Positions 1-19,383 of a stretch of DNA of 64,000 nucleotides are shown piece after piece. This DNA is from Spirosoma oryzae. Lineage in GTDB: Bacteria > Bacteroidota > Bacteroidia > Cytophagales > Spirosomataceae. The notes beneath the pieces are model-generated. The model was given only the letters and a program-made list of their open reading frames with translations, searched no databases and was not told the DNA's origin. The position numbers were made by a program, and so were the translations under genes. Each line of letters begins with the position of its first letter. Within the stretch, counting starts at the first letter, position 1. The stretch lies in assembly GCF_003002825.1 (NCBI RefSeq), contig NZ_PVTE01000021.1:1-64000 (forward strand). Direction: 5' to 3'.

Positions 1-81
<81 letters not shown>

Positions 82-3567: not shown

Positions 3568-5388
3568 TTAATTCACAGTATCGCCCCTTAGCGCCCGGAA
3601 TCGTTTTCGCGACTCGGCGCCGTGTATACTTCCCGGATATTGGGCCAGTACCTTCTGGTAAGCCTCCATAGCAGCGGACTTGTCTTTAAGTTGTTCTTCG
3701 TAAATTTTACCCGTTAGAAACTGCGCATCATCACCCAAGATATCAGTGGCATATTTAGTCGTTACCACCTTCAGGTCGTCCAGTGCTTCCGTTGTTTTAC
3801 CTTGTCGGAGATAGGTATTTGCGCGTAACCAGAGTATCTCGTCCGCCAGGCTATGGTCACCGTATTTTTTCCACAGCTGGTTGAGTTTATCCACAGCCTC
3901 GTCGGTTTTATTCTGGAAAAGTAGCAAATCGACAGCCGCATACTCACGCATCGCAGCTTCCGTGCTATCCATACCCGTGTTGTCCACAATTAGCAGACTC
4001 AACTGTTCAGCATCGTTGGCAATTTCGCGGGAGGTGGCCAGCTTGAGCACGTCCAGAATGTCTTTCGATACGGTAAAGTCGCCTTTGTAATAGTGAAGCT
4101 TCGCATTTTTCAGCTTGGCTTCATAACCAAGCAGCTCTTCTTTCTCCGACTTTTCCACTTGTGCGTATAACAATGTGGATTCCCAGGGCTCTCCTTTCAA
4201 CAGAAAGATATCGCCCTTGTCAAGTTTGCACTTATCCACAAAACTACGGTCAGTTTTCCCCAGCCCAATGGCCATATCGAGAACTGTTATCGCTGTGTCT
4301 TTGCTGTCAAGGTAATTAGCGTACAAATTAGCCGTGCTTCGGAGGGCTTCCAGCGTCTTACCGTTTAACCCCAATTCCTGAACCATCTTCTGGTAGTCGG
4401 CGATCAGCTTCCGAATTTCAACCTTATCAACAGGGTACGTATTTTTCACCTGTTCCTCCCGGGCGTTGATCACCAACCGCCGAGCAAATGGATACAGCTG
4501 CCCTTGTGGATAAGTTGTGCATATATAGTCAAATGCATCAGATGCCGTTTTGTATTCTTTGTTGTTAAACGCTAAAGCACCCAGTTCATACACACGGTTG
4601 CCTGCCAGCTTAAGACGTTTATCCGTGGCTTTCTCCAGTAATAGTGCCCGGCTGAACTTCTGCTTCTGGGTATAGAACCAGATAAGCATGTCATTGTAAG
4701 CTAACTCGCTGGGCTCTTTCTGTATTCGCTCGTACAGCACCTTCTCAATGAGTGGCTCGTCCTTCGTATTGATATAACTCTGGAGATTAGCAAACGCAGC
4801 TTCTTTCTTATCCGATTGCTTGGCCGTATTAATGCTTTCATCGATAGCCTTTACTGTTTGGCCCGTGGCTTTGTATAAAGCCATCAGCTCGTCGCTAAAC
4901 GCCATCGGCGACTGACTCACCTCCCGACCTGTCTCAAAGCTTACAATCGCCCATTTCGATTCACCGACGTCCCGGAAGGCGCTCGCCAGTTGTTCGAGCT
5001 TCACTGTCGATACCCGCGCCGATTTAACAGCCGCCATAAATTCTTTACTGGCTAGCGTGGTATCTCCTTTTTGCTGGGCCAGCTGCCCTAGTAGTAATTC
5101 ACAAAATGGTTTACTGGCTTCGTTACCGCGCACCTGCTGCCGCAGAAACTTTTCGGCCTGCTCCGTTCGACTACTCCGCTGTAAGCTTTGTACGTACTGA
5201 TTGAGCCGAGGCCACGTCGGTTCCGTCTTAACCAACTTTGCGTATTCATCAGCGGCCTTTCCAAATTCACCACTCTTAAAGTACTCATCGGCCAGGGCTC
5301 CCCCCGTTCCCGATTGCCCGGCAACCTGACATTCACCAGATAGCCACACCGCGCACAGGCAAAGCGTCAACAACGTTTTTACCAACAT
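3568..5388 (-). CDS. Exported tetratricopeptide-repeat protein
   Basis: 606 residues with a signal peptide (MLVKTLLTLCLCAVWLSGEC) followed by TPR-like helical repeats over most of the chain. The clearest are near residues 27-75 (YFKSGEFGKAADEYAKLVK) and in the last 110 residues (LRANTYLRQGKTTEALDDL, then KSAAMEAYQKVLAQYPGS). No enzymatic motif is seen. TPR proteins of this kind are periplasmic or outer-membrane scaffolds in Bacteroidota; the partner is unknown. The possible lipobox cysteine (C20 in SGEC) is not a strong one. The 5' end abuts the candidate replication origin, so its promoter must lie inside or beside the DnaA-box cluster, raising the possibility of DnaA-responsive expression. 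Confidence 0.75.
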   Translation of the reverse strand: MLVKTLLTLCLCAVWLSGECQVAGQSGTGGALADEYFKSGEFGKAADEYAKLVKTEPTWPRLNQYVQSLQRSSRTEQAEKFLRQQVRGNEASKPFCELLLGQLAQQKGDTTLASKEFMAAVKSARVSTVKLEQLASAFRDVGESKWAIVSFETGREVSQSPMAFSDELMALYKATGQTVKAIDESINTAKQSDKKEAAFANLQSYINTKDEPLIEKVLYERIQKEPSELAYNDMLIWFYTQKQKFSRALLLEKATDKRLKLAGNRVYELGALAFNNKEYKTASDAFDYICTTYPQGQLYPFARRLVINAREEQVKNTYPVDKVEIRKLIADYQKMVQELGLNGKTLEALRSTANLYANYLDSKDTAITVLDMAIGLGKTDRSFVDKCKLDKGDIFLLKGEPWESTLLYAQVEKSEKEELLGYEAKLKNAKLHYYKGDFTVSKDILDVLKLATSREIANDAEQLSLLIVDNTGMDSTEAAMREYAAVDLLLFQNKTDEAVDKLNQLWKKYGDHSLADEILWLRANTYLRQGKTTEALDDLKVVTTKYATDILGDDAQFLTGKIYEEQLKDKSAAMEAYQKVLAQYPGSIHGAESRKRFRALRGDTVN

Positions 5389-5400
5389 TACTTTATTAGT

Positions 5401-5820
5401 TTATCTTTTTAAAAAAACGTTATTGTAGTTATTAGCTGTGTGGATATGTGCATAAAAAGATTATGCACAGGGTAATCAAGATTATGTGGATAAAACAGGT
5501 GCTTATTCACCACTCACATATAAAGTTATCCACTTTTAACAATCTATCTCTCAGCTAATTAACATTTTATCCACAAAGAGGGCCGTTTTTCAGTGTGGAT
5601 TCGTTGATAAATTTTATCCACGAAAGGCGTTGCGGAAAACTTTTGGATACCGCGTCTACATCTTGTGGATTGTCCACAGAATCGTGGTGGATATCGGTAA
5701 ATCGGAAAGCTATCCACATTCATCCACATTTCATGTCAGACTTTCTAACATGCTATCCACAGAATTTGGCAGTTATTCACATGATTATCCACAGAAAAAC
5801 TGGCTTTTTTTTAGTTAGAA
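5401..5820. other. Candidate chromosomal replication origin (oriC): DnaA-box cluster
   Basis: The 499-bp gap between the TPR gene and the methyltransferase gene has no credible gene. It contains six exact TTATNCACA DnaA boxes: 5447-5455 (-), 5461-5469 (+), 5485-5493 (-), 5567-5575 (+), 5773-5781 (+) and 5785-5793 (+). Eight more sites differ by one base: 5439, 5503, 5526, 5614, 5670, 5710, 5720 and 5753. AT-rich stretches flank the cluster (5401-5434 and 5796-5820) and could be the unwinding element. mnmG, a frequent origin neighbour, starts about 3 kb away, with a parS-like site in its leader. dnaA itself is not in the window, which is not unusual in Bacteroidota. Confidence 0.8.
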
Positions 5821-5887
5821 TAGACCTGTCTATCGGAACGGGAAAAGCAGGAGCTACTATAGCCAGCTAAGGGAAGAGTGCTGTGTA

Positions 5888-6775
5888 TTACGCTTTCTGG
5901 AAGATATAGATCAGGCTGGACCAGTCGCCTGTTCGCCTGGCTTGCCTGTTTGATGCTAAGCCTGTCAGAAAACTTTTCACGTAATCAGTACGACCGATCT
6001 GATAACGCGTACTGAGCATACTGATATAAAAAGCGTCGAATGGCATCGGCTTCTGAGCCATCAGCGTGAACCCGTTCTTCGCAAACAGCGGCTTGATGGT
6101 AGTTGGCGTGAAATGATGCAAGTGACGGGGAACGTCGTAAGCGGCCCAATATTGGCCAAAGACCTTTGCATCGTAAGAATCGGAATTCGGAACGGCGATT
6201 AACAAAGAACCTGAATCGCTCAGTAACTGATGAAATCGAGTTATCGTCGACTCCAGATCAGCAATATGTTCCAACACATGCCACAAGGTGATGACATCGT
6301 ACTTGTTGGCTGATACATCGGTCAGCCGTTCTGCAATGGGCGTTTTTAATTTTTCGCTCGCAATACGACGGGCGTCGTCATCAGGTTCCATTCCGGATAT
6401 GGTCCAGCCAGTTGCCTGACATGTTTCCAGGAATGAGCCGGTACCGCAGCCGACGTCCAACAAGTTGCCCGGCCGCTTGGCCAGCGAATTTATCAAGGCA
6501 AGTTTTGAGCGCAGTGTATACGAACGGACTCCTTTGTAAACCGTATCGATTATCCCTCCCCCACTATCGTTGTGAGAAATGTACGCGTCGGACTTGTAAT
6601 ACTGTCCGATTGATGCTGCATCAGGACGCGGATTCGTCATCCGAAAACCGCACTGATCACAGGATTGAATCGCGAAGGTTTTGTCGCTCACTAAGTAATC
6701 CTTGCAGGATAGAAATGGGGAAAAGCTTGTCCCGGCGCAAACGGGACAAGCGATAATCGTTTCAAGCGAAGCCAT
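5888..6775 (-). CDS. Class I SAM-dependent methyltransferase with N-terminal Cys4 zinc motif
   Basis: The ATG at 6775 (MASLETIIACPVC) is preferred over an upstream in-frame start at 6874, because the longer form would overlap the end of mnmG and add unlikely residues. The 295-residue protein has CPVC (C10, C13) and CDQC (C39, C42), a zinc-ribbon-like pair, then the SAM-binding motif I LLDVGCGTGSF (about 105-115) and LWHVLEHI (motif III/IV region). This matches the Methyltransf_23 type with an N-terminal zinc motif. The substrate is unknown; such enzymes act on sugars, lipids or small molecules. The gap to mnmG is 46 bp, so co-transcription is likely. Confidence 0.8.
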   Translation of the reverse strand: MASLETIIACPVCAGTSFSPFLSCKDYLVSDKTFAIQSCDQCGFRMTNPRPDAASIGQYYKSDAYISHNDSGGGIIDTVYKGVRSYTLRSKLALINSLAKRPGNLLDVGCGTGSFLETCQATGWTISGMEPDDDARRIASEKLKTPIAERLTDVSANKYDVITLWHVLEHIADLESTITRFHQLLSDSGSLLIAVPNSDSYDAKVFGQYWAAYDVPRHLHHFTPTTIKPLFAKNGFTLMAQKPMPFDAFYISMLSTRYQIGRTDYVKSFLTGLASNRQARRTGDWSSLIYIFQKA

Positions 6776-6821
6776 TACACTATGTTTAGAAAATGCAGAA
6801 ATCGTACAGGCACGGGTTTGT

Positions 6822-8684
6822 TTACCGACCCATGTAGACGAGCAATATAGAAATATCAGATGGACTGACGCCACTGATTCTGGAAGCCTGACCGATGGTC
6901 GATGGGCGCAAACGCTTCAACTTATCGCGTCCTTCAAACGAAAGTGCCTTCAACTTATCGTAATCAAAATCGATGTGAATAGCCAGACTTTCCCAACGAT
7001 CTATTTTAGCTGCGTTCTGCTTTTCGCGCAGCAAGTAGTCCTCGTATTTCAGTTCGACAACTGTCTGCTCGATCACCTCATCATTGTAGACATCGGCGTT
7101 GGGCAACGTCAAATTCAGTAGTTGAGAGACATTCTCAGCCGTAGTCTCGGGACGTTTGATAATGGTTTGTAGGCTCGACGTTTCGCGCAGCGGAGCGCTA
7201 TTTTTGTCGACAAGCCAGGCATTCACCTCGTCAGGTTTGACCTTTTTGGTTTGAATTGCTTTCGTCAGTTCCGCAATCTTTGCCTGCTTTTCGACTAGTG
7301 CGTTGTACCGTTGCGACGAGGCAAGACCCAATTGATAACCCTTCTCGGTGAGCCGGATGTCGGCGTTATCTTGTCTGAGAAGGGTGCGGTATTCGGCCCG
7401 CGACGTAAACATGCGATACGGTTCCTCGGTGCCTTTCGTAATCAAATCGTCGATCAATACGCCAATGTACCCTTCCGATCGTTTGACGGTGAATGGTTCT
7501 TTTTCATGAACAGATTGATGCGCATTGATCCCCGCAATCAGGCCCTGACACGCAGCTTCTTCATAACCGGTCGTACCATTTATCTGTCCGGCAAAAAACA
7601 GATTAGCGACCTGATGGGTCTCTAGCGTATGCTTCAACTGGGTTGGCGGAAAGAAATCGTACTCTACCGCATAGCCTGGCCGAAACATTTTAGCCTGTTC
7701 AAAACCCGGTATTTTTTGCAAGGCTCTTAACTGTACGTCTTCCGGCAACGACGTCGAAAAGCCGTTGACGTATATTTCGACGGTATCACGACCCTCGGGT
7801 TCTACGAAAATCTGGTGACGATCTTTATCGGCAAATCGGTTGATTTTGTCTTCCACCGATGGGCAGTAGCGCGGTCCCAATCCTTTGATGCGGCCGGTAA
7901 ACATGGGTGATTTCTCGAAGCCCGTCTTCAATTCATCGTGCACCGCCTGATTGGTATACGTGATCCAGCAGCTTTTTTGCTCCGTCAGCGCCGGAGTATC
8001 TGTGTACGAGAATTTACCGGGTATGGCGTCGCCGAGCTGTTCTTCCATGGCAGCATAGTTCAAACTACGGCCATCAACCCTGGGTGGCGTTCCGGTTTTC
8101 ATACGGCCACTTTCGAAGCCAAGCTCGATCAGTTGTTCGGTTAAGCCGCTCGATGCTGCTTCTCCCGTACGGCCCCCGCCAAATGTTTTCTCGCCGATAA
8201 ACATGCGTCCATTCAGGAATGTACCGTTGGTAAGTACAACGCTTTTGCTGTAAAAGAGCATACCCATTGTGGTTTTTACCCCGCAGACGGTACCGTCTTT
8301 CACAAGTAGTTCGCGCACGGAATCCTGCCAGAAGCTTACGTTAAGATTACTTTCCAACGTTTTACGCCATTCCCAGGCAAAGGCATGGCGGTCGCTCTGG
8401 CAGCGTGGACTCCACATTGCTGGACCTTTCGACCGATTCAGCATCCGGAACTGAATCATTGTCTTGTCGGAAATTATGCCGGACATACCACCGAGTGCAT
8501 CGACCTCGCGGACGATTTGGCCTTTGGCCACACCACCCATGGCCGGATTGCAGGACATCTGGGCGATTGTCTGCATGTTCATGGTGATGAGCAATACTTG
8601 CGAACCCATGGTCGCAGCCGCGTGCGCTGCTTCACAACCGGCGTGTCCACCACCCACCACGATCACATCATAGCTTGACGTCAT
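6822..8684 (-). CDS. mnmG: tRNA uridine-5-carboxymethylaminomethyl modification enzyme MnmG (GidA)
   Basis: An FAD enzyme that, with MnmE, installs the cmnm5 group on U34 of tRNAs. The N-terminus [20 protein letters not shown] is the dinucleotide-binding fold. Further family signatures are [12 protein letters not shown], the PRVDGRSL segment, CPSVEDKI and TGYEEAA. With the ATG at 8684 it has 620 residues, the usual length. A longer frame opens with GTG at 8726, but its extra residues (FHVKHF) are simply the translation of the parS-like DNA upstream, so I reject it. In many bacteria gidA lies beside oriC, which fits the DnaA-box cluster about 1 kb beyond its 3' end. Confidence 0.96.
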
Positions 8685-8703
8685 TTCAACAGTTTTTGTA
8701 AAA

Positions 8704-8733
8704 TGTTTCACGTGGAAACTTTTCACGTGATTA
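8704..8733. promoter_or_regulatory. parS-like ParB-binding site(s) in the mnmG leader
   Basis: TGTTTCACGTGGAAAC (8704-8719) agrees with the parS consensus TGTTTCACGTGNAACA at 14 of 16 positions, including the full CACGTG core. A second core, TTTTCACGTGATTA (8720-8733), follows directly but is weaker. parS sites cluster near oriC and the DnaA-box cluster lies about 3 kb away. The short frame through the site encodes FHVKHF, a known by-product of parS sequences at gene starts. Confidence 0.65.
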
Positions 8734-8754
8734 CACTATTTATGAAGCGACAAC

Positions 8755-8787
8755 AAAAAACCGCTCGCCTTTGTGCCAGACGAACGG
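8755..8787 (-). terminator. Intrinsic terminator downstream of the DUF4175 gene
   Basis: On the minus strand CCGTTCGTC pairs with GGCGAGCGG around a 9-nt loop, followed by TTTTTTG. Two pairs are G-U only on the minus-strand RNA, which fixes the direction. It terminates the gene ending at 8811. Confidence 0.85.
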
Positions 8788-8810
8788 TTGTAAAAATTGA
8801 GTGTAACGGC

Positions 8811-11800
8811 TTATTTACTAAGCTTCTGTAAATACTGGTTTGCCTGATTCTTGTAAAAGATATTGTAGTTAGGCGTCACGGATCTGAGTACTTCCGTCTG
8901 CTTGGTGAACTGCCTGTTCGTTAGCGAATCGAAGAAAGCCGGGGTCTTGGCTCTTTGCGAACGGGCTGCTTCGGCTTGCCGCTTCGGATCTTCCTCCTGC
9001 TGTTTAAGCGCCTTTTCTGATTCCAGCAAGCGGGTTAGAATCTGATTCTGCCGATCAATCGTGTTTTGGTTGATGCGTTTATTGACCAGATCAGTTTCAC
9101 TCTGATCCATCTTGTCCATCAAATCTTTCACCTGATCGCCCTGCTGTTTGCCCGCTTCAGTGCCCTTTGCACCCTCTTCCAATTTCTTGAGCATCTCCCG
9201 AATCATCGCCTGTTGCGACGCTAACCGCGATAATTCTTCTGATAACCCCTGCCCCGATTTCCCACTCTTCTGAAGCTGTTTCATCTCAGCATTCAGCTTC
9301 TCCTGCATTTCTCCCAGACCCGGGCTTTGCCCTTTCTTTCCTGGCTTACCTTTCCCCGGCATAGCCATGGCGTTCATCTGCTGCTGCATGTTTTTCAGCA
9401 CGTCACTAAGCATCAGGGACAGATTGTTAATGGAAGTCATCGCAAATTGCTGTTTCGACGAAGCCATACTAAGGCGTCGATCTTTAAGCTGCTGTACGCT
9501 CTCGTCCATGTAAAACTTCATGTTCGTAAGTTCACGCGTAACAAACGGCTGAATCTGGGCGACCCGACTTGCCAGTGCGTTGAGGCTATCCTCAATAATT
9601 TTAGCATCGTCCTGGAGCTTTAACTGTTCCTGCGACAGCTTGGTCACGCGAGGATCTTGCAGGCTCATACCACGAAACTCTTTCATGATTTTTTCCTGCC
9701 CAAATGACAAAGTAATGAGATTGTCCAGAATGCTGCGCAGGTCATCCATGTTCTCCTGCATCTCACTCATCTGGCTGGATTGCATCGATTCACGCATTGA
9801 CTTACTCATCGAGCGCATTGCTTTGGATGCCTTGCTTTGGGAGCCTGAAGCTTGCTTGTTTTTCTTTTGCTTGAGCTGCTTCATGGCCTGATCCATCTGC
9901 TGCTCGATGTCTCTTTGCTGCTCGTCGGTGGATTCAGGCTTGGTCAATTCATCTTTTTCAGCCTGCTTCTCTAACTCCTCGATCATCTTTTTCAAGGCGT
10001 CAAACTCTTCTTTAGACAGCTGTTGCTTTTGTTCCTGCTGTTCCTGCGAGCCCGCGTTATTTTCATTTTCCTCTGCCTGCTTGTCTAATTTATCCGCTTG
10101 CTTCTCCAACTGATCAGCCACATTATTGACCTTCTGTTCGAGCTGCATCTGTTTAAAAAGTTTAAGCGCTCGGTCCAGATCGCGCTCCATATTACGCTCT
10201 TTACGCGATAAGCGATCCAACATATCCGACGCTTTCTCATCCTGTCGCTTCTCCAGCAACTGCTTGAGTTGTTCGTAGAGTTGCTTGGATTCAGGATCAA
10301 GTAGCTCGTTAAAGAGCTTCTGTAGCTGCTTCAATTTTTCCTGAACCGCGTTATCTTTCTCCGCAAAACGTTGTTGCAAGTCGTTAGTCTTCTGGAACTG
10401 CTCCTGGAGTTTCTGTACTTCCCGCATCAATTCCTCTCGCTTCTGAAGAATATCCTGTAGCTGTTTTTTATCCTGAAAATCCGACGACTTTTTGGTGCGC
10501 ATGCGCTCTTCAAGCTGACTCAGTTCTTTCTTGATAGCCTGTGTCTTGCTTAGCGCCTTGTCTATATCTTCCTGCGTCTTGTCTGCTGATTGATCGACTT
10601 GCTTCTGCACATCAGCGTTGGATGGAATGGCGAAAACGAACGGCGTGGACTTGGCTGATTTTGGTCCGTGGACGCCATCATTATCCCATACCGTTACGGT
10701 GTATTCCAGCTTATCCCGTTGCCCAAGACGTAAACTATCCAGCGACCAATTGTAGACGAAGTTCTGAGAAGTGGTCGTGCGATTGAACGCAATGTCTTTC
10801 GTGTACACAGGCGATTTCTTCCCCTCCCGCTCGATAGTATACGACAGTCGAAGTTTTGAGAATCCGTAATCATCGTTAATCAGACCAGACAAAGCGACAT
10901 AGTTGTAGGTCGTTGAGTCCTCAATACGGTTGACCGAAATCTGCGGGTAGCGATCAGGAATAACCTGAATGTTATAGCTGACCAACGATGGTTTGTTGAC
11001 ATTCGCGTTGGCGAGTGAGATGCCGTATTGCGTATTCTGTACCAGTCGCTTCGACGCTACGAACTTATCCCCATCGGCTAATTGCGCTTTGATCTGGGAA
11101 CGGTCGGCGTCGAATTTAAGCACGAGCGAATCCGTATGATCGGCTGCAAACGACCAGTTCGCTACGGTACCTTCGGGAATCAGTAGGTTGCCCGCATTGG
11201 CCAGTTGCTCAGCGGGTTTGTTCAGATAAGCCGGAAATGTTAGCCGAACATCGAAGGCCAAAATTGAGGGCCTATCGATCAGCGACACCGTGTACGTTTT
11301 CGATTTGAATCCTGCTGCTTCGAGATGAAAGTCCAAATCGCGCTGTATGTTGTCGAACGTATACTTGTACTCCGATCCCGACGGCGATAGCTTCAGCCTG
11401 GTTCCATCAGTTACGAGATAGACCGATTCGGGAATAGTGTTACCCGTCAGGCTTACTGTCAACGGAAAATCTTCGTTGCGAAAGCCCTTCATCGATTTAT
11501 TCCGTACGACAAACTGGAAGGGTGCTTCTTCAACAAACTCCTCGTTGTAGTTGACAAGCCGCGTCGATGACTGCGTCAGAAAATCAGGCTTGATTAATAG
11601 CAATAACAGAATGAGCGCTAACGGTGGAATAGCGTATTTTAGAAACTGACGATTGCCACTAAGTTCTATCGCATTGGCAAATCGGTTGATAAGTAATTGC
11701 TGTGACCGCTGGTCGAGACTGGCTCGAAGCAGATCACTTTGCTCCGAACTGATGCGTTGCAGCTGAAGTGTATTCAGCAGCTTGTCCGAAATGTCGGGAA

Positions 11801-12110
11801 AGTACGTGCCGATCTGCCGGGCCGCTTCATCCGTCGATAGTGGTTTGCTCAACCCGTAAAGACCCAGCAAAGGTCGAATGATGAACTGGTAAAGACCAAT
11901 CACTACGGCGACCAGAAAGCCAAAGAAAAGCACGGCGCGTCCGCCTGAGCTAAAGCGGCCAATAAATTCAGCCGTGTTAATCAACAGATAGGCCGTACCC
12001 AGCAGGGCCACGAAAAACAGACTTCCTTTAACGAGTTGATTTTGGAAGTAGCGCCGTTTGTATTCGTCGATGCGCTCGAGTAGCGTTGAGTAAGCTGCGG
12101 ATGATTGCAT
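8811..12110 (-). CDS. DUF4175 family membrane protein with long coiled coil
   Basis: 1099 residues. Three hydrophobic segments lie near residues 29-49, 58-78 and 158-174. A beta-rich extracytoplasmic region of roughly 200-500 follows, then a very long Q/E/K-rich helical region of about 500-1060 with heptad-like runs such as LSQLEERMRTKKSSDFQDKK. This is the layout of the DUF4175 proteins common in Bacteroidota, whose function is unknown; an envelope role is likely. It ends with its own terminator and is followed upstream by a small gene 17 bp away, so the two may form one transcript. Residues 740-800 are extreme in composition (many Q, K and S). Confidence 0.75.
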   Translation of the reverse strand: MQSSAAYSTLLERIDEYKRRYFQNQLVKGSLFFVALLGTAYLLINTAEFIGRFSSGGRAVLFFGFLVAVVIGLYQFIIRPLLGLYGLSKPLSTDEAARQIGTYFPDISDKLLNTLQLQRISSEQSDLLRASLDQRSQQLLINRFANAIELSGNRQFLKYAIPPLALILLLLLIKPDFLTQSSTRLVNYNEEFVEEAPFQFVVRNKSMKGFRNEDFPLTVSLTGNTIPESVYLVTDGTRLKLSPSGSEYKYTFDNIQRDLDFHLEAAGFKSKTYTVSLIDRPSILAFDVRLTFPAYLNKPAEQLANAGNLLIPEGTVANWSFAADHTDSLVLKFDADRSQIKAQLADGDKFVASKRLVQNTQYGISLANANVNKPSLVSYNIQVIPDRYPQISVNRIEDSTTYNYVALSGLINDDYGFSKLRLSYTIEREGKKSPVYTKDIAFNRTTTSQNFVYNWSLDSLRLGQRDKLEYTVTVWDNDGVHGPKSAKSTPFVFAIPSNADVQKQVDQSADKTQEDIDKALSKTQAIKKELSQLEERMRTKKSSDFQDKKQLQDILQKREELMREVQKLQEQFQKTNDLQQRFAEKDNAVQEKLKQLQKLFNELLDPESKQLYEQLKQLLEKRQDEKASDMLDRLSRKERNMERDLDRALKLFKQMQLEQKVNNVADQLEKQADKLDKQAEENENNAGSQEQQEQKQQLSKEEFDALKKMIEELEKQAEKDELTKPESTDEQQRDIEQQMDQAMKQLKQKKNKQASGSQSKASKAMRSMSKSMRESMQSSQMSEMQENMDDLRSILDNLITLSFGQEKIMKEFRGMSLQDPRVTKLSQEQLKLQDDAKIIEDSLNALASRVAQIQPFVTRELTNMKFYMDESVQQLKDRRLSMASSKQQFAMTSINNLSLMLSDVLKNMQQQMNAMAMPGKGKPGKKGQSPGLGEMQEKLNAEMKQLQKSGKSGQGLSEELSRLASQQAMIREMLKKLEEGAKGTEAGKQQGDQVKDLMDKMDQSETDLVNKRINQNTIDRQNQILTRLLESEKALKQQEEDPKRQAEAARSQRAKTPAFFDSLTNRQFTKQTEVLRSVTPNYNIFYKNQANQYLQKLSK

Positions 12111-12127
12111 AAGGGTCGGAAAGGAAA

Positions 12128-12484
12128 TCAGGCGGCAAACACAGATTGGAAATAAGTAATAACGTGGCTTTTCAGCAGCGTTTCCTGAGCCAGCAAATCG
12201 CCGTGTGGCAATGGTTTGATCAGTGTCCAGTGCGGCCAGCCATCTTTGTCAGGACCCGCAAAATCGTAGTAGCTGGACTCGCTCAACACGCGGCAAACGC
12301 CAATGTGCATCAAGTCCTGTTTCTGTTCTTTCGAGAATCGGATGGGCCCCCTACCCAATTCCTGAACGCCGATTAAAAAGAGGACGGCATTTAGATCAGC
12401 GGGTCGTTTACCAAGCAGCTGCTGTAACTGATCGAGCAAGTTTTCCCAAGCTGATTCGGTATGTGATTTTTCGGAATCTGTCAC
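12128..12484 (-). CDS. Conserved-looking hypothetical protein (118 aa)
   Basis: A small soluble protein with no signal peptide or membrane helix. Residues 13-30 look like an amphipathic helix (AWENLLDQLQQLLGKR); the centre, ADLNAVLFLIGVQELG, is hydrophobic and the C-terminal half has aromatic/Pro patches (DGWPHWTLIKPLPHG). No family is recognised. The start is GTG at 12484; no internal ATG gives a sensible N-terminus. It lies 17 bp upstream of the DUF4175 gene on the same strand, so it is probably co-transcribed, and is divergent from comF. Confidence 0.6.
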   Translation of the reverse strand: MTDSEKSHTESAWENLLDQLQQLLGKRPADLNAVLFLIGVQELGRGPIRFSKEQKQDLMHIGVCRVLSESSYYDFAGPDKDGWPHWTLIKPLPHGDLLAQETLLKSHVITYFQSVFAA

Positions 12485-12557
12485 GTCAAAAAAGTATATA
12501 CTCCCTAAATTACAATTAATTACGCATAAGTAACGATGCGTCTTCCGGTTTCGGTTT

Positions 12558-13253
12558 ATGAAAAGTCTACTAACTGACCTGATTAATCTGCTGTTCCCGA
12601 CATTGTGCGTGGGCTGTGATCAAACCCTGCATCAAGCCGATCAGTTTCTGTGCACGGCATGTCGGCTGGCGTTGCCGGAAACAAACGACCATCAGTCGCC
12701 TGACCACAATGAATCACACAACAAGTTTGCCGGGAAGGTACCCATACGGTATGTAACCTCGTACGCTCGCTTCGTAAAAGGCGGTGTTATGCAACGAGCC
12801 ATCCATCGGATAAAGTACGAGGGAAACAAAGATGCTGCCACGGGATTCGGCCGATGGTACGGAGCGATTCTGAACGAGCATAGTTCGTTGGCTGACGATA
12901 TCGATTTGCTGGTGGGCGTGCCGCTTCACAAACAGCGGCTCAGACAACGAGGCTACAACCAGGCCGATCAGCTGGCGATAGGATTGAGTGAAACAATGCA
13001 GCTTCCAGCACGTACGGACGTACTAGTCCGAACGGAATTCAAGTCGTCGCAAACGAAAAAGAATCGGCTGGAACGATGGGCGAATGTTGAAACCGTATTT
13101 GGCGTAGCTGATGCGTTAGCTGTGAAAGATAAGCATATCGCCATTGTCGACGATGTATTGACTACAGGCGCTACAATTGAAGCCTGCGCGGCTGAATTAC
13201 TCCGGGCGGGCTGTAGGGAGGTCAGCGTCATCACGTTGGCTGTGACGCAATAA
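12558..13253 (+). CDS. comF: ComF family phosphoribosyltransferase-like protein
   Basis: 231 residues. The N-terminal zinc ribbon has C17/C20 (CVGC) and C32/C35 (CTAC). The C-terminal type I phosphoribosyltransferase domain has RLRQRGYNQADQL and the PRPP loop IAIVDDVLTTGAT (about 194-206). This is the architecture of ComF/GntX, associated with DNA uptake in competent bacteria, although many Bacteroidota carry it without known competence. It is monocistronic: divergent upstream gene and a hairpin terminator directly after the stop. Confidence 0.88.
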   Translation: MKSLLTDLINLLFPTLCVGCDQTLHQADQFLCTACRLALPETNDHQSPDHNESHNKFAGKVPIRYVTSYARFVKGGVMQRAIHRIKYEGNKDAATGFGRWYGAILNEHSSLADDIDLLVGVPLHKQRLRQRGYNQADQLAIGLSETMQLPARTDVLVRTEFKSSQTKKNRLERWANVETVFGVADALAVKDKHIAIVDDVLTTGATIEACAAELLRAGCREVSVITLAVTQ

Positions 13254-13283
13254 AAAAGGCGCTCCCCGTAGGAAGCGCCTTTC
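13252..13283. terminator. Convergent terminator between comF and gldJ
   Basis: AAAGGCGCT pairs with AGCGCCTTT around a 10-nt loop. The minus strand has a six-U tract (for gldJ) and the plus strand a shorter T run, so it can serve both genes. Confidence 0.85.
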
Positions 13284-13300
13284 ATTGTAAAAGCTTGTGC

Positions 13301-14557
13301 TTACTTATTACGACCTACACCAATCATAGCGCAGCGGAAACCAATCATGGCCGTTGCCGAATCCTGATCGAGGAAACGACGGGTACCCGGTGATAACCAA
13401 TACGCTACGTCGTTCCAGGAGCCACCTTTGTAGACGCGCAGCTTGTCGTTGATAAGCGACTGATTGTTCTTCGCATCATAGTTCTTCGCGTCATCCATGT
13501 AACCGTTCCGACGAATCGGGTTGAGGTCGCTCACATCTTGGTACGACAGCGGACGGTATACGTCATATACCCATTCGTTTACGTTACCAGCCATGTTGTA
13601 CAGGCCAAAGTCGTTGGCAGGATACGCGTAGATTTCAGCGGTGATGATCGCGCCGTCATTCGAGCGGCCAGCGATACCAGCGTAGTCACCACGGCCGCGT
13701 TTGAAGTTAGCCAGCATCTGCCCCTGTTTCCGACCCTTCTTCGGATTCCGTACAGAAGAACCGTCCCACGGATAAATCCGTTGGTTGATCTGGTTTTCGT
13801 CCATGTACTGTGTCCCGATAAGGGCTTTCGCTGCGTATTCCCATTCGGCTTCCGTTGGTAGCCGGTAGTCAGGCAGGATTGTACCGCTTTCCAGACTTGG
13901 TTTACCGGCTGGTGCTGCCGATGCCTCAGCCAGAGCCGGGTCTTCCGCCTGCTTCGACTTACGCTTCAACGAGAAGCCTCCTTTCTTCTTTGGACCACCC
14001 CCTTTTGCCAGTTCGCTATTTACTGCGTCTGACCGCCAGCGGGCATAGTCACTAGCCTGCACCCACGATACACCGACGACCGGGTAATATCGGAAAGCCG
14101 GGTAGCGAAGGTACTGGGTAACGTATGAGTCGTTGAACGACAGTGGGTTAGACCATACTGTCGTATCGGGAAGGGCAGCTCTGACGACCTCTTCCGATGA
14201 GTCACGCGTGATGGCGTTCAGGTATTCGAGATAGTGGACGTTTGCCATTTCGGTTTCGTCCATATAGAATGACTGAATCGAAACGGTGCGTTCGCGGTTG
14301 TCGCGGCTGTTCATTACGTCCTCTTCCAGCGCGCCCATCGTAAACCGACCGCCTTCAATAAAGACGAGGTTTGGGCCCGCTTTCTGACCGGCGAATTTCT
14401 TTACCTGGAAACCATCTTTCTGGTTGTAAGCAATACCGGTCGCCGTGCTTTTCTTGCCCGGCTGTACGCTCGTTGGGTGCTTTGACTTACAGGCCGAAAG
14501 AGCCGCCGTTGCCAGCAGCACATAGGCAGCTTGTTTCAGGTGATACTTTTGAATCAT
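13301..14557 (-). CDS. gldJ: Gliding motility lipoprotein GldJ
   Basis: 418 residues. A lipoprotein signal ends at C23 (ALSAC). The body is a formylglycine-generating-enzyme/sulfatase-modifying-factor domain: GPNLVFIEGGRFTMG (about 60-75), YPVVGVSWVQASDYARW, YRLPTEAEWEYAAK, NMAGNVNEWV and a C-terminal GGSWND...GFRCA. The early segment TGIAYNQKDGFQ and the insert distinguish GldJ from GldK. GldJ is an outer-membrane-associated component needed for Bacteroidota gliding and for stability of other type IX secretion proteins. mfd lies 41 bp upstream on the same strand. Confidence 0.88.
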   Translation of the reverse strand: MIQKYHLKQAAYVLLATAALSACKSKHPTSVQPGKKSTATGIAYNQKDGFQVKKFAGQKAGPNLVFIEGGRFTMGALEEDVMNSRDNRERTVSIQSFYMDETEMANVHYLEYLNAITRDSSEEVVRAALPDTTVWSNPLSFNDSYVTQYLRYPAFRYYPVVGVSWVQASDYARWRSDAVNSELAKGGGPKKKGGFSLKRKSKQAEDPALAEASAAPAGKPSLESGTILPDYRLPTEAEWEYAAKALIGTQYMDENQINQRIYPWDGSSVRNPKKGRKQGQMLANFKRGRGDYAGIAGRSNDGAIITAEIYAYPANDFGLYNMAGNVNEWVYDVYRPLSYQDVSDLNPIRRNGYMDDAKNYDAKNNQSLINDKLRVYKGGSWNDVAYWLSPGTRRFLDQDSATAMIGFRCAMIGVGRNK

Positions 14558-14598
14558 TGCTGTATTTTGTGTAAGATACGCTGGTGCTAAATTAGTGC

Positions 14599-17500
14599 TT
14601 AACTCGTCATTTCGGCCAGAACGTTATTCAACTGCTCCACCGAATCGATACCCGAATGCGTGAAAATCGGTCTTCCTTTCGACTCTTTGAGTGAGCATTT
14701 CGACGGGTTCCGCTTGATGTACTCAATTACTTTGCCAAATTGGTCGGACGTGAAGAACGCGTCATTCCCGTTAGAAACGAAGTAGCCTTTCAGAATAGTA
14801 TTCTTAAGCGTCAGTTTTTCAAGGTATAAGCGTTCGGCTTTCCAGCGCACGTTGACCATGTCAATCAGGTTGATAACCTCTTCAGGGATCGGTCCGAACC
14901 GGTCCAGAATTTCCTGACGGAAGGCTTCCAGTTCCGTCGAATTTTCGATGCTGTCCAGGCGGGTATATAGTGCCAGACGTTCCGAAATATTGTGTACGTA
15001 CCGCTCCGGAATAACAACCGGAAGGTCCGTTTCAATAACTGTGTCGGGCAGCTTCAGTTTCAAATCACCGGGTTTCGTCTCGAACAGGTCTTTGAACTCA
15101 TTTTCCCGCAACTCCTGTACGGCTTCATCCAGGACCTTGTGGTACATCTCGAAGCCCAGGTCGTTGACGAAGCCACTTTGTTCCGCACCCAACAGGTTCC
15201 CCGCGCCCCGAATGTCGAGGTCGCGCATGGCAATCTTGAATCCTTCGCCCAGATCCGAGAAATCTTCCAGCGTCTGTAGCCGTTTGCGGGCATCCGCCGT
15301 CAGTACCGATGGCGGTGGCGTGAGCAGGTAACAGAACGCCTTGCGGTTCGATCGGCCAACCCGGCCCCGCATCTGATGCAGGTCCGATAAGCCGAAATAG
15401 TGCGCGTTGTTGATCAAAATTGTATTGGCATTCGGAATGTCCAGCCCCGATTCGATGATGTTGGTCGAGATCAGCACATCGTACTCACCATCGATAAAGC
15501 GGGTCATCATCCGTTCCAGCCGCTCCCCTTCCATCTGCCCGTGGGCAACACCGACCCGCGCTTCAGGAACTAACCGCATAATCATGTTGCCAATGGATTC
15601 GATATCGCCGATTCGGTTATGCACAAAGAAAGCCTGACCACCTCGTTTGATTTCTGTACTGATGGCGTCGCGGATAACGGTCTCGCTAAACGCGTGAACT
15701 TCCGTCGTAACCGGTTGCCGGTTGGGCGGTGGCGTAGCGATGACCGACAGGTCACGGGCACCCATCAGCGAGAAGTGCAGCGTACGGGGAATGGGTGTAG
15801 CGGTGAGCGTCAGGACATCGACTTCCACACGCAGTTCTTTAAGCCGATCTTTCGTTTTAACGCCGAATTTCTGCTCTTCGTCGATAATCAGCAAACCAAG
15901 GTCTTTGAACTTGATGTCCTTGTTGACAATGCGATGCGTACCGATCAGGATGTTGATTTCACCCGACGCAACGCCTTTCAAGATCTCCTTGATTTGTGCA
16001 GCCGTACGAAACCGATTGATGTATTCGACCTTGACCGGAAAGTCAGCCATACGGTCGGAAAACGTCTTGAAATGCTGCATCGCCAGGATCGTCGTCGGGA
16101 CTAGCACGGCGACTTGTTTGTTGTCGCTGACGGCCTTGAACGCGGCCCGAATCGCGATTTCGGTCTTACCGAAACCGACGTCTCCGCAAACCAGCCGGTC
16201 CATGGGGTTGGGCCGCTCCATGTCGTCTTTAACGTCGTTGGTGGCCTTTGCCTGATCGGGGGTGTCTTCGTACAGAAACGACGATTCAAGTTCGGTTTGT
16301 AGGAACGTGTCGCGGCTGAACGCGTAACCCGGCGCGTTTCGGCGCTTGGCGTAGAGCGCAATCAGTTCGCGGGCAATGTCTTTGACCTGTTTGCGAATGC
16401 GCGATTTCTTCTGCTCCCACTCCTGCGAGCCTAGCTTGCTCATCGGCGGAGGACTCCCCTCCCGGCCCGTGTACTTGGCAATCTTGTGCAGACTGTGGAT
16501 GCTGACGAGCAGAATGTCGTTGTCGCGGTAGATCAGCCGAATGGCTTCCTGCTGATTACCAGCGTTATCGACCTTTTCTAAACCCGCAAACCGACCAATG
16601 CCGTGGTCGATATGGGTGACGTAATCGCCCGGTTGCAGCGTTTTCAGTTCACGCAGTGTCAGCGCCTTCGACTTCGTGAATTTATCCTGAACCTTGAAGC
16701 GGTAGTAGCGGTCGAAGAGCTGGTGATCGGTAAAGCAAACGATCTTCAGCGAGTCGTCGATGTAGCCTTCCCGCAGACCGATGTTAAGCGGCTGAAAGGT
16801 AAGGTGCGGATCGAGTTCTTCGAAGATGGTACGGAGCCGGTCGAGCTGTTTGAACGACTCGGCTGCGATAACGTTAGTATAGCCCTTCGCCTGATTGTCG
16901 CCCAGCGTATCAACAAGGCGTTTGAAATCCTTATTGAACGACGGCTGCGGTTTCGATTGGTACTGCTGTCGACCATCCGTTTTGAAATAGAATTTCCGAC
17001 CAAACTCGACCGTCCGAAACTCTTTAATCTGATTCAGAAACGTACGCCGGGTTTCGAACAGGTCGCCGGGGTTCGATACGACCTGAATGCCACCACTGCT
17101 AGCCAGCACCGTCTCAAAACTCTGCTCGGCTTTTTCGTAGCACTTCTCGATGATCTCCAGCGTGAACTCAACGTCTTTTGCCCAGATCGTCGTGGTAGCC
17201 GGTAGGAAGCTGAAAAACGGGTCCCGCGTTTCCTCGATCAGTTTGGTCTGAATGTTCGGGATAACGTTGATAAAGTCAACAGGGTCTGTGGATAACTGTG
17301 TTTCCGGGTTGAATTGGCGGATGCTTTCTACTTCATCGCCGAACAGATCAATGCGGAACGGGTACTCGCTGGCGAATGAAAAAACGTCGATGATACCACC
17401 CCGAACGGAAAACTGACCGGCTTCGTAGACAAAGTCCGTTTTCTCGAACTCATACGTCAGCAGCAGGTCGGCAACGAAATTTGTGTCGATCTTCTCCCCT

Positions 17501-17952
17501 ACCCGAATCGTCAGCGTGTTGGCCTGTAGCGAGCGCTTGTTGATCACTTTCTCCGACAACGCTTCGGGATACGTAACGACGAGTAAGCCGTCTTTCGGGG
17601 CTGGGTTCAACTTGTTGAGTACCTCAGCCCGCATCAGCACGTTGGCGTTTTCTACCTCTTCGTACTGATACGGCTTTTTGTACGACATGGGAAATAGCAG
17701 AATTTCCCGTTCCAGCAGATGCTGTAAGTCATTGTAAAAGTAGGCGGCTTCATCGCGATCAGTCATCACAAACAGATGATTGCCACCTACCGATTTGACG
17801 ATAGCCGACGCAAAGACCGCGTCCAGACTACCCGCCAAACCCTTGATCTGAAGTCGTTGCGGATCGCCGGTATGCTTACGACCAAACGGTTCAGATAGTA
17901 TCTGGATAAAACTATCGTTGGCGTAAAGGCCAACTAATTCGGCTGGTTTCAA
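14599..17952 (-). CDS. mfd: Transcription-repair coupling factor Mfd
   Basis: 1117 residues, normal for Mfd. From the N-terminus: a UvrB-like region (domains 1-2, about 1-330), the RNA-polymerase-interacting CarD-like domain (LKTLQPGDYVTHIDHGIGRF, about 440-510), and an SF2 translocase with Walker A GDVGFGKTE, the box IIDEEQKFGV and TATPIPRTLHF. The TRG region and C-terminal autoinhibitory domain follow. It displaces stalled RNA polymerase and recruits UvrA. The start appears to be TTG at 17952, since the first internal ATG is about 60 residues in and would remove conserved sequence. It may be co-transcribed with gldJ. Confidence 0.97.
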   Translation of the reverse strand: MKPAELVGLYANDSFIQILSEPFGRKHTGDPQRLQIKGLAGSLDAVFASAIVKSVGGNHLFVMTDRDEAAYFYNDLQHLLEREILLFPMSYKKPYQYEEVENANVLMRAEVLNKLNPAPKDGLLVVTYPEALSEKVINKRSLQANTLTIRVGEKIDTNFVADLLLTYEFEKTDFVYEAGQFSVRGGIIDVFSFASEYPFRIDLFGDEVESIRQFNPETQLSTDPVDFINVIPNIQTKLIEETRDPFFSFLPATTTIWAKDVEFTLEIIEKCYEKAEQSFETVLASSGGIQVVSNPGDLFETRRTFLNQIKEFRTVEFGRKFYFKTDGRQQYQSKPQPSFNKDFKRLVDTLGDNQAKGYTNVIAAESFKQLDRLRTIFEELDPHLTFQPLNIGLREGYIDDSLKIVCFTDHQLFDRYYRFKVQDKFTKSKALTLRELKTLQPGDYVTHIDHGIGRFAGLEKVDNAGNQQEAIRLIYRDNDILLVSIHSLHKIAKYTGREGSPPPMSKLGSQEWEQKKSRIRKQVKDIARELIALYAKRRNAPGYAFSRDTFLQTELESSFLYEDTPDQAKATNDVKDDMERPNPMDRLVCGDVGFGKTEIAIRAAFKAVSDNKQVAVLVPTTILAMQHFKTFSDRMADFPVKVEYINRFRTAAQIKEILKGVASGEINILIGTHRIVNKDIKFKDLGLLIIDEEQKFGVKTKDRLKELRVEVDVLTLTATPIPRTLHFSLMGARDLSVIATPPPNRQPVTTEVHAFSETVIRDAISTEIKRGGQAFFVHNRIGDIESIGNMIMRLVPEARVGVAHGQMEGERLERMMTRFIDGEYDVLISTNIIESGLDIPNANTILINNAHYFGLSDLHQMRGRVGRSNRKAFCYLLTPPPSVLTADARKRLQTLEDFSDLGEGFKIAMRDLDIRGAGNLLGAEQSGFVNDLGFEMYHKVLDEAVQELRENEFKDLFETKPGDLKLKLPDTVIETDLPVVIPERYVHNISERLALYTRLDSIENSTELEAFRQEILDRFGPIPEEVINLIDMVNVRWKAERLYLEKLTLKNTILKGYFVSNGNDAFFTSDQFGKVIEYIKRNPSKCSLKESKGRPIFTHSGIDSVEQLNNVLAEMTS

Positions 17953-17981
17953 GCAAATTCAGGTTGTGATATACAAACAGG

Positions 17982-18010
17982 AAAAGCCGCTGGAAGCGTA
18001 TTCCGGCGGC
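17982..18010 (-). terminator. Intrinsic terminator after the barstar gene
   Basis: Minus strand: a 10-bp stem (GCCGCCGGAA with TTCCAGCGGC, allowing one weak pair), 5-nt loop, followed by TTTTCCTGTTT. It separates the barnase/barstar pair from mfd. Confidence 0.65.
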
Positions 18011-18058
18011 ACGTAGTTGTAACAGCACGCGAAAGCGATTTGTTGCAGGTACGGTGGG

Positions 18059-18505
18059 CTATAAACTGGCCATTGACTGAAAGTCAATCTGCTCCTTTTC
18101 CAGGATCGACTGAATGCGCGGACTATCCTCAAATACAACGACCAGTTCCTTCTTATCCGTGATCTCGTCATCGTCGAGCCACTTCCAATCTTCGGCTGTT
18201 GCGTCCAGCATGTTGAATACGCTGGCTAGTTTAGCCGGGTCCCGTTCTTTACTGATTAGATCGGCTGTATTGGTGAAATACAGCACAATACGCTCATCTT
18301 CCAGCCATTGCAAATCGTTGAGAGCGTCGTTGAGGGCATCTATGTTGTAGCCAAACGAGTCTGGAAATTCGAGTACGTCGGCCATGGATTCATAAAACGA
18401 ACGAAGTGTCGTCGCGTCTTTGCCATCGACGTGCGCAATAAACCAATCGGCGAAGTGAGCTTCCAGTTCGCGTTCTGACTGGCAGATAAGTATGTTCGGT
18501 GTCAT
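18059..18505 (-). CDS. Barstar family ribonuclease inhibitor
   Basis: 148 residues, acidic, no signal peptide, hence cytoplasmic. The segment [20 protein letters not shown], then [20 protein letters not shown] and [11 protein letters not shown], is the barstar signature (helix plus the G-x-N-x-DAL-x-D-x-L-x-D-L-x-W motif that plugs the RNase active site). The length is greater than the ~90 residues of Bacillus barstar, with a C-terminal extension of unknown role. The ATG overlaps the stop of the RNase gene by 4 bp (ATGA), so the two are translationally coupled, RNase first. Confidence 0.85.
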
Positions 18506-18975
18506 TCGATTTCGGTAAATGAGCGATAGTGATCGCGGGTGTAGTAAGCGTGATCGTCGGAACTGGTAACAAGTCGCTCAGCGCCCCGGTTCTGTCCCTG
18601 AATTTTTGGTTTTACGTCCCATTCCTGATAACGCAGTCGCTGACCAGTGCTGTTCTGAATCGGTAGCTGCCGCTCGTAATTGCCGAACGTACGGCCACCA
18701 ACGTAGCCTTTAGGTGCTCGGTGATTCGTACGAACATACGCCAGTACGGTACGCACGTAGTCAGGGATCGCCAGTGCTGAAGTGGTAGCCTGATTATCAG
18801 TACTCTGCTCCGACTGATGACGATGATGGCGTTTGTGGCGGGCCGGCTGCTGCTGAACGTCAGCGGTTGGTTGCTGACTGGTACGCTGTTCGTTTCCACG
18901 ACAGGCGACGGTGGAAAACAGCAGGCTCAGTAGAAGACTGAATCGAATCAATGTGGAAAACGGGTGGGATTTCAT
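18502..18975 (-). CDS. Exported barnase/RNase Sa-type guanyl-specific ribonuclease (lipoprotein)
   Basis: 157 residues. A signal peptide ends in STVAC (C25), a likely lipobox, followed by a His/Gln-rich linker (about 30-65). The catalytic domain has the N1/T1-family signature: [24 protein letters not shown] (general base E118), AERLVTSSD (R134) and [10 protein letters not shown] (general acid H149). The residue spacing matches barnase and RNase Sa. It is paired with a barstar-like inhibitor in an overlapping gene. Extracytoplasmic placement suggests either RNA scavenging or a toxin delivered to competitors, with the inhibitor protecting the producer. I see no delivery domain. Confidence 0.85.
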
Positions 18976-19015
18976 GCGACAAACTTACTGGTAAGAAGGA
19001 TACCACCATAGCGCA

Positions 19016-19046: not shown

Positions 19047-19048
19047 TG

Positions 19049-19345: not shown

Positions 19346-19383
19346 AAGCAGTGTCGTTTTGCATCGAGCCGGCTTTCATTATG

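What the first reader, a model, noticed from the sequence alone, without database searches (positions are those of the whole stretch)
5401..5820. Candidate chromosomal origin with at least six exact DnaA boxes
Seen: six TTATNCACA boxes and eight one-mismatch boxes in about 360 bp of a gene-free, AT-rich spacer, in both orientations. Known: oriC regions contain clustered DnaA boxes and often lie near mnmG/gidA. Here mnmG, a parS-like site and a co-directional rRNA operon are all within about 6 kb. dnaA is not adjacent, so an annotation based on dnaA position would miss it.
Basis: partly seen in the sequence, partly recalled or inferred. Interest (0 to 1): 0.72.

Follow-up and report, generated by a model that had tools for sequence, protein, structure and literature searches.

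The report
Chromosome replication origin beside mnmG
This spacer is very probably the place where this Spirosoma bacterium starts copying its chromosome; it lies far from the dnaA gene that is often taken as the marker of that place, and similar clusters next to the same genes are found in many of its relatives.

Summary
Reading it as oriC is supported. The cluster is in 30 of 30 same-genus loci, window included. Sampled GC skew of two relatives turns from minus to plus in the interval holding this locus and back about half a chromosome away. dnaA is 0.7-2.8 Mb away in 12 of 12 genomes and has no box cluster. Among 80 Cytophagales loci the cluster goes with mnmG beside the TPR gene (44 of 47, against 2 of 33). 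parS-like sites mark mnmG in 40 of 47. The weakest 50 bp of the window adjoins the array and carries TTATT/TTGT motifs. Against: at fine scale the skew turn in one relative is about 3-24 kb to the side, and an order-level genome shows no skew signal. Extra: exact boxes lie inside the adjacent TPR coding sequence above synonymous shuffles. An ordinary kind of element, correctly found; replication itself was not testable.

The parts
5389..5887 (.). Intergenic spacer proposed as oriC
   Evidence: No ORF of 100 aa or more; box cluster; orthologous spacer with cluster in 30 of 30 same-genus loci, window included
5386..5435 (.). Proposed DNA unwinding element (its first 3 bases are the start codon of the TPR gene); TTATT at 5393-5397, TTATTGT at 5420-5426, TTATTAG at 5429-5435
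   Evidence: Least stable 50 bp of the 64-kb window by nearest-neighbour sums; partly conserved in the 30-row alignment; TTATT/TTGT are E. coli ssDUE-binding motifs (passages of PMC10316083)
5439..5447 (-). DnaA box, 1 mismatch, R1-like position next to the DUE
   Evidence: kept with at most one mismatch in 19 of 30 aligned spacers, window included
5447..5455 (-). DnaA box, exact
   Evidence: kept in 29 of 30
5461..5469 (+). DnaA box, exact, not conserved
   Evidence: kept in 3 of 30
5485..5493 (-). DnaA box, exact
   Evidence: kept in 30 of 30, exact in 26
5503..5511 (+). DnaA box, 1 mismatch, not conserved
   Evidence: kept in 2 of 30
5526..5534 (+). DnaA box, 1 mismatch
   Evidence: kept in 30 of 30
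5567..5575 (+). DnaA box, exact
   Evidence: kept in 29 of 30
5614..5622 (+). DnaA box, 1 mismatch
   Evidence: kept in 25 of 30
5670..5678 (+). DnaA box, 1 mismatch
   Evidence: kept in 27 of 30
5710..5718 (+). DnaA box, 1 mismatch, not conserved
   Evidence: kept in 3 of 30
5720..5728 (+). DnaA box, 1 mismatch
   Evidence: kept in 11 of 30
5753..5761 (+). DnaA box, 1 mismatch
   Evidence: kept in 15 of 30
5773..5781 (+). DnaA box, exact
   Evidence: exact in 30 of 30
5785..5793 (+). DnaA box, exact, R4-like position at the far end
   Evidence: kept in 30 of 30, exact in 27
3568..5388 (-). TPR-repeat protein gene flanking the DUE side
   Evidence: Pfam TPR hits; a match at E up to 0.001 in 56 of 59 genomes, own included, some of them weak or partial
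3887..3895 (+). Exact DnaA box inside the TPR coding sequence (codon site 500)
   Evidence: enrichment over synonymous shuffles
4232..4240 (+). Exact DnaA box inside the TPR coding sequence (codon site 385)
4505..4513 (-). Exact DnaA box inside the TPR coding sequence (codon site 294, residues TYPQ)
   Evidence: codon conservation at percentiles 97.1 and 99.5 for columns 295 and 296
5888..6874 (-). Methyltransferase-domain gene between spacer and mnmG (likely real start near 6775, by inspection of the translation)
   Evidence: Pfam Methyltransf_23 5.8e-33; translation
6822..8726 (-). mnmG/gidA, read toward the spacer (likely real start near 8684, by inspection of the translation)
   Evidence: Pfam GIDA 4.2e-163; translation
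8704..8719 (.). parS-like site at the 5' end of mnmG
   Evidence: a site at the same place in 40 of 47 syntenic loci
8719..8734 (.). Second CACGTG site beside it, only partly parS-like
1..81 (-). 5' end of 16S rRNA, cut by the contig edge, pointing away from the spacer
   Evidence: Rfam RF00177, 55.7 bits

Best explanation
The spacer is the chromosomal replication origin (oriC) of this Spirosoma. Proposed working: DnaA binds the conserved boxes (leftward-facing ones mainly at the left end, rightward-facing ones over the rest) and fills the weaker ones between them; the DnaA oligomer next to the AT-rich stretch 5386-5435 melts it; DnaA holds the strand with the TTATT/TTGT motifs as in E. coli, and the helicase is loaded there. 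ParB on parS at mnmG, about 3 kb away, would mark the same region for segregation. Shown here: box cluster, its conservation, weakest duplex, motifs, skew switch at about 145-kb resolution, parS-like sites, no rival at dnaA. Inferred: DnaA binding, melting, helicase loading, ParB binding.
For: Density above shuffles. 3-7 exact and 11-17 boxes with at most one mismatch in the 1.5 kb upstream of the TPR gene in 30 of 30 same-genus loci. Within the spacer, box positions are 79% and other positions 51% identical to the window; 8 of 14 boxes are kept in 25 or more of 30. GC-skew switch in 2 of 2 sampled same-genus genomes. dnaA 0.7-2.8 Mb away in 12 of 12 genomes (coordinates) and without a cluster. 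Cluster in 44 of 47 Cytophagales loci with mnmG upstream of the TPR gene and 2 of 33 without (Fisher p 2e-16, rows not phylogenetically independent). parS-like site at mnmG in 40 of 47, any such site in 1 of 33 loci without mnmG. Least stable 50 bp of the window adjoins the array. TTATT or TTGT within 30 bp of the edge box in 29 of 30 same-genus loci (shuffles mean 8.6, max 15) and 34 of 47 named loci (20.2, max 30). Own DnaA keeps R399, R407, Q408, K415, D433 and H434 of E. coli (roles recalled).
Against: The fine-scale cumulative skew minimum in G020 is at 1430565, 20 kb right of the spacer; with gene strand regressed out the best change-point is 1428001 and the supported interval 1414001-1434001 still misses the spacer (1410172-1410663) by about 3 kb. 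Keto skew exceeds its permutations in G020 but not in G008; AT skew and gene-strand bias in neither; G045 (order level, 20 samples) shows no signal in any measure. Of 21 TPR loci outside the genus only 6 hold 10 or more boxes per 420 bp, 5 hold 5-7 and 10 hold 4 or fewer. E. coli ssDUE residues V211 and R245 are L and K here, T435 is S. Skew in three further complete genomes was not obtained.
Confidence: 0.95

Rival explanations
1. A DnaA-titration or regulatory cluster (datA- or DARS-like, or a DnaA-controlled promoter of the TPR gene), with the true origin elsewhere within some tens of kb.
For: Fine-scale skew turn about 3-24 kb to the right in G020; the cluster abuts the start of the TPR gene, so effects on its promoter are possible.
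Against: No comparable cluster of exact boxes elsewhere in the own genome; in 400 kb around the locus in G020 the best 420 bp more than 2 kb away holds 4 near-boxes; the cluster adjoins the least stable DNA of the window with DUE-type motifs; TPR genes without mnmG beside them mostly lack it.
Confidence: 0.04
2. The origin is at dnaA, as the start of the G017 record suggests, and this locus is an unrelated conserved element.
For: In the G017 record the DnaA-domain match is at 400-885, so the record appears to have been started at dnaA.
Against: dnaA lies inside the minus-skew arm, not at a switch, in G020 (710 kb) and G008 (5.44 Mb); no box cluster in 13 of 13 dnaA loci.
Confidence: 0.005
3. 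A chance or compositional pile-up of AT-rich 9-mers in a spacer.
For: The spacer is AT-rich.
Against: 2000 dinucleotide shuffles never exceed 2 exact or 5 near boxes; cluster in 30 of 30 same-genus loci, with boxes more conserved than the rest of the spacer.
Confidence: 0.005

Closest known systems
Escherichia coli oriC (NC_000913, 3925744-3925975)
   Same: AT-rich DUE with TATTGT and TTATTAG followed by a leftward TGTGGATA box, then an array ending in a rightward TTATCCACA; mnmG nearby; dnaA not adjacent, about 42 kb away
   Different: Here mnmG is on the side opposite the DUE, is read toward the origin and is separated by a methyltransferase gene; the array spans 355 bp; parS-like site at mnmG; a TPR gene flanks the DUE. 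GATC content and IHF sites were not tested
Cytophaga hutchinsonii oriC used in replicative plasmids (Xu et al. 2012, Appl Microbiol Biotechnol 93:697)
   Same: Same order; an uncultured Cytophaga (L256) has mnmG, methyltransferase, 8 near-boxes (0 exact) and TPR gene in the same order
   Different: The paper is not held; only its reference line was seen, so where that oriC lies was not compared
Thermotoga maritima oriC (PMC10316083, passages seen)
   Same: DUE with a TTATT motif next to a box array that includes an inverted box
   Different: No run of three or more DnaA-trios in register in the spacer other than in an A tract; other box consensus

Membership tests
Bacterial chromosomal oriC (DnaA-dependent) | Cluster of DnaA boxes above chance | tested here: met
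   6 exact, 14 with at most one mismatch; maxima of 2000 shuffles 2 and 5
Bacterial chromosomal oriC (DnaA-dependent) | Adjacent AT-rich, easily melted element | tested here: met
   Least stable 50 bp of the window, 5386-5435; melting itself not tested
Bacterial chromosomal oriC (DnaA-dependent) | At the GC-skew minus-to-plus switch | tested here: met
   At about 145-kb sampling in G020 and G008; at fine scale about 3-24 kb off in G020; no signal in G045; not testable in the own draft genome
Bacterial chromosomal oriC (DnaA-dependent) | Conserved in position among relatives | tested here: met
   30 of 30 same-genus loci; 44 of 47 named loci with mnmG synteny; without regard to synteny 6 of 21 loci outside the genus hold 10 or more boxes per 420 bp
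Bacterial chromosomal oriC (DnaA-dependent) | Cognate DnaA with box-binding residues | tested here: met
   R399, R407, Q408, K415, D433, H434 kept, T435 is S (the role of these residues is recalled)
Bacterial chromosomal oriC (DnaA-dependent) | Highest marker frequency, autonomous replication | not testable with these tools
   Needs reads or an experiment
B. subtilis-type DUE with DnaA-trios | Run of three or more [T/A]A[G/A] triplets next to a box | tested here: not met
   Only an A/T-tract match at 5812-5813 on the minus strand
E. coli-type DUE | TTATT/TTGT motifs beside the first box | tested here: met
   5393, 5420, 5429 in the window; 29 of 30 and 34 of 47 loci against shuffle maxima of 15 and 30
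E. coli-type DUE | DnaA ssDUE-binding residues V211 and R245 (recalled) | tested here: inconclusive
   L222 and K256 in the own DnaA
parABS origin domain | parS near oriC and a ParB gene | tested here: met
   parS-like site at 8704 and in 40 of 47 syntenic loci (rule written after first hits); ParB_N match at C4:42484-42762; binding not tested

The most novel reading that the evidence does not exclude
The origin does not stop at the spacer: the protein-coding TPR gene on the DUE side carries a second, codon-embedded set of DnaA boxes under selection, so that the DUE has boxes on both sides and one arm of a two-part origin is written inside a gene. In Cytophagales the block mnmG-parS-box array-DUE-TPR gene would be one co-inherited origin cassette; where the TPR gene has no mnmG beside it (mostly Hymenobacter and Pontibacter) both the spacer array and the coding boxes are largely absent.
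Probability: 0.4. Interest if true: 0.6.

Novelty: new member of a known kind. Interest (0 to 1): 0.4.

Why it matters
It places the origin of Spirosoma, and probably of many Cytophagales, at a recurring gene neighbourhood (mnmG with parS-like site, TPR gene) instead of at dnaA. Records rotated to dnaA, and growth-rate estimates from ori/ter depth that assume it, would be off by about 0.7-2 Mb in the ten same-genus complete genomes examined. The spacer is a candidate for oriC plasmids in this group. The boxes in the coding sequence give a testable case of an origin element that overlaps a gene.

Tried and rejected
DnaA-trio motif of the B. subtilis kind: scanned, only an A-tract match. Other small box groups in the own genome: C6:72383-72424 and C4:140738-140777 are inverted repeats (terminator-like by inspection), C20:46811-46844 lies in a coding frame, C12:144517-144537 is a pair; none rivals the spacer. 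Gene-strand bias and AT skew did not exceed their permutations in any of the three sampled genomes. mnmG loci of 15 genomes whose TPR locus lacks mnmG hold at most 4 near-boxes per 420 bp, so mnmG alone does not predict the cluster; their origins were not found. My first DUE-motif count included CTATT, added after looking; the report uses without it. The relaxed parS rule was written after seeing the hits. Rows dropped before counts: L029 from the TPR-gene box test (29 of 30 used), L232 and L243 (the two discordant loci) from its set without synteny, and 15 of 47 mnmG genes by a length filter (32 used). In the set of 33 without mnmG, L231, L232 and L260 have under 3 kb of DNA upstream, so mnmG could not have been seen there. 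Papers: ten searches of an open-access library gave no listing of a Spirosoma or Cytophagales origin beside mnmG and a TPR gene (listings only, weak evidence of absence). Passages were seen of PMC5288383, PMC2768785, PMC5891637 and PMC10316083; no paper was read whole.

Full report
WHAT IS THERE. The window is the first 64 kb of contig C21 of a 6.57-Mb draft genome in 75 contigs. Its genus is very probably Spirosoma: contigs of same-genus genomes have the same lengths as named Spirosoma records (G021:C8, 199662, S. panaciterrae; G029:C2, 520592, S. luteum; G034:C12, 911509, S. arboris; G025:C183, 173301, S. spitsbergense). From left to right: the 5' end of a 16S gene pointing left (1-81), an aldehyde dehydrogenase, a threonine synthase, a TPR-protein gene on the minus strand (3568-5388), the spacer, then a methyltransferase gene and mnmG, both on the minus strand.

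NO RIVAL CLUSTER OF EXACT BOXES IN THE GENOME. All 117 exact boxes were listed through two half-patterns (63 and 54). Eleven of the 117 are in the window: 6 in the spacer, 3 in the TPR gene, 2 further right. The only other group of three within 100 bp, C6:72383-72424, is a palindrome upstream of a gene that looks like bioF (name by inspection). dnaA is on C5; its 3.5-kb locus has no exact box. One-mismatch boxes were not listed genome-wide.

CONSERVATION IN THE GENUS. A TPR match at E up to 0.001 is in 56 of 59 genomes, own included, some weak or partial. In the 30 loci fetched, window included, the 1.5 kb upstream of the gene holds 3-7 exact and 11-17 boxes with at most one mismatch; two further same-genus loci have 12 and 13 per 420 bp. 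Four of the 35 other same-genus genomes gave no usable full-length match (G002, G012 and G033, fragmentary assemblies; G003, nearly complete, only a partial match inside a very long frame) and were not followed. In the 30-row alignment, box positions are 79% and other positions 51% identical to the window; 8 of 14 boxes persist in 25 or more of 30, while those at 5461, 5503 and 5710 are nearly private. Loci of one genus are related, so these are not 30 independent tests.

ORDER LEVEL. Of 23 genomes outside the genus, 21 have a TPR match. In those 21 loci (densest 420 bp anywhere in the locus) 6 hold 10 or more boxes, 5 hold 5-7 and 10 hold 4 or fewer; mnmG was not looked for in these. A scan of named genomes gave at least 585 relatives, of which the best 80 were kept. 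With a cluster defined as 5 or more near-boxes per 420 bp in the 900 bp upstream of the TPR gene, it is present in 44 of 47 loci in which mnmG is found upstream and in 2 of 33 in which it is not. Exceptions: L239, L245 and L248 have mnmG but only 3-4 boxes; L232 and L243 have the cluster without mnmG in the stored DNA (L232 has only 2.25 kb upstream, L243 has 7.7 kb). Of the 33, 25 are Pontibacter (13), Hymenobacter (9) or Adhaeribacter (3). At least four of the 80 are the same genomes as among the 30.

SKEW. In G020 the best two-arm fit puts the minus-to-plus switch between 1368416 and 1512460, with the orthologous spacer at 1410172-1410663, and the return at 4.11-4.25 Mb; in G008 between 1092825 and 1238535, the spacer just right of 1103335, return at 3.86-4.01 Mb. 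Scores 1.035 and 0.974, permutation maxima 0.622 and 0.698 (100 each). Keto skew gives the same switch intervals but exceeds its permutations only in G020 (0.657 against 0.553; G008 0.509 against 0.533). AT skew and gene-strand bias do not exceed theirs. G045 (another family, 20 samples) shows nothing in any measure (all). In 400 contiguous kb of G020 the cumulative minimum is at 1430565. Genes for about 16 kb to the right of the spacer are mostly head-on, which shifts skew; with gene strand regressed out the best change-point is 1428001, support interval 1414001-1434001. A small offset therefore remains unexplained.

dnaA. In 12 of 12 complete or near-complete genomes the distance between dnaA and the TPR locus, from the coordinates and taking the chromosomes as circular, is 0.70 Mb (G020) to 2.8 Mb (G040); in the ten of the same genus 0.70 to 2.05 Mb. 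In G017 the DnaA-domain match is at 400-885 of the record, 1.0 Mb from the locus. The dnaA loci hold at most 3 near-boxes per 420 bp.

ANATOMY. The least stable 50 bp of the entire window is 5386-5435, against the left end of the array. Read toward the array it ends TTATTGT, AG, TTATTAG, CTG, then the leftward box TGTGGATAT. E. coli oriC, fetched for comparison, has TATTGT, TTATTAG and then TGTGGATAA. Passages of PMC10316083 state that the TTGT/TTATT motifs in the E. coli DUE bind the DnaA complex and are crucial for initiation. TTATT or TTGT lies within 30 bp of the edge box in 29 of 30 and 34 of 47 loci, above shuffles of the same segments; TTATT alone in 21 of 30 (shuffle max 12) and 28 of 47 (max 24); the longer forms TTATTAG/TTATTGT in only 3 of 30 (max 3) and 8 of 47 (max 5), so the close likeness to E. 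coli is not general. Boxes in the left third lean leftward (78 of 127) and in the right third rightward (125 of 159) in the 30 loci; in the 47 there is hardly a lean on the left (93 of 176 leftward) and a clear one on the right (124 of 164 rightward). DnaA is 38% identical to E. coli DnaA; the recalled box-contact residues are kept except T435S, and the recalled ssDUE residues are changed to L and K.

parS. By a rule written after the first hits, a parS-like palindrome lies within 1.2 kb of the mnmG match start in 40 of 47 syntenic loci, often as a pair; elsewhere in the locus in 2 of 47; and anywhere in 1 of 33 loci without mnmG. The window has one at 8704-8719 and a weaker one beside it. A ParB_N match is on contig C4.

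BOXES INSIDE THE TPR GENE. Exact boxes occur at 1.16 per kb in 29 same-genus TPR genes (60 boxes; 26 of 29 genes have one or more), against 0.014 per kb (23 in 1.6 Mb) in the 80 samples from G020 and G008. Shuffling synonymous codons within each gene gives 8.65 on average, maximum 17 in 300. Named Spirosoma to Larkinella (12 genes, at least four shared with the 29): 12 against 2.0 (max 6). Other Cytophagales with synteny (35 genes): 25 against 5.6 (max 12). TPR genes without synteny (31 of 33): 3 against 1.2 (max 5). mnmG (32 of 47): 3 against 2.9 (max 8). In the genus the boxes fall at 7 codon sites, 4 of them used often (12, 7, 22 and 14 of 29 genes). At two of these (294, TYPQ; 469, IVDN) four of the six third bases that lie inside the box are in codon columns at the 97th percentile of codon conservation or above; the other two are at 38.8 and 85.2, and column 472, whose third base is outside the box, is also high (95.7). 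The other two frequent sites show no unusual codon conservation (88.6 at most). Shared ancestry inflates the shuffle test. This is suggestive, not shown.

VERDICT. Functional proof is missing.

Noticed in passing
window 3887-3895, 4232-4240, 4505-4513: Exact DnaA boxes inside the TPR coding sequence, above synonymous shuffles in loci with mnmG synteny and much less so without.
   Followed up: partly
L285 2884-2925 (G000:C6:72383-72424): Three exact DnaA boxes within a palindrome next to a gene that looks like bioF; possibly a transcription terminator that happens to contain the box.
   Followed up: partly
G017:C1:400-885: A single-contig same-genus record that appears to start at dnaA, about 1.0 Mb from the likely origin.
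   Followed up: no
L256 4043-5137: Six parS-like sites in about 1.1 kb at the 5' end of mnmG in an uncultured Cytophaga.
   Followed up: no
window 5805-5829: Conserved T-run and following stretch at the right end of the spacer in the 30-row alignment, role unknown.
   Followed up: no
window 5888-22261: Most longer ORFs for about 16 kb right of the origin are read toward it, head-on to a rightward fork; the same in G020.
   Followed up: no
L217-L268, loci without mnmG; L269-L283: In 15 genomes (mostly Hymenobacter, Pontibacter, Adhaeribacter) neither the TPR locus nor the mnmG locus has a TTATNCACA cluster; their origin lies elsewhere or uses other boxes.
   Followed up: partly
G003:C1:727999-728679: A nearly complete same-genus genome with only a partial TPR match (50% identity) inside a 5585-aa open frame.
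   Followed up: no
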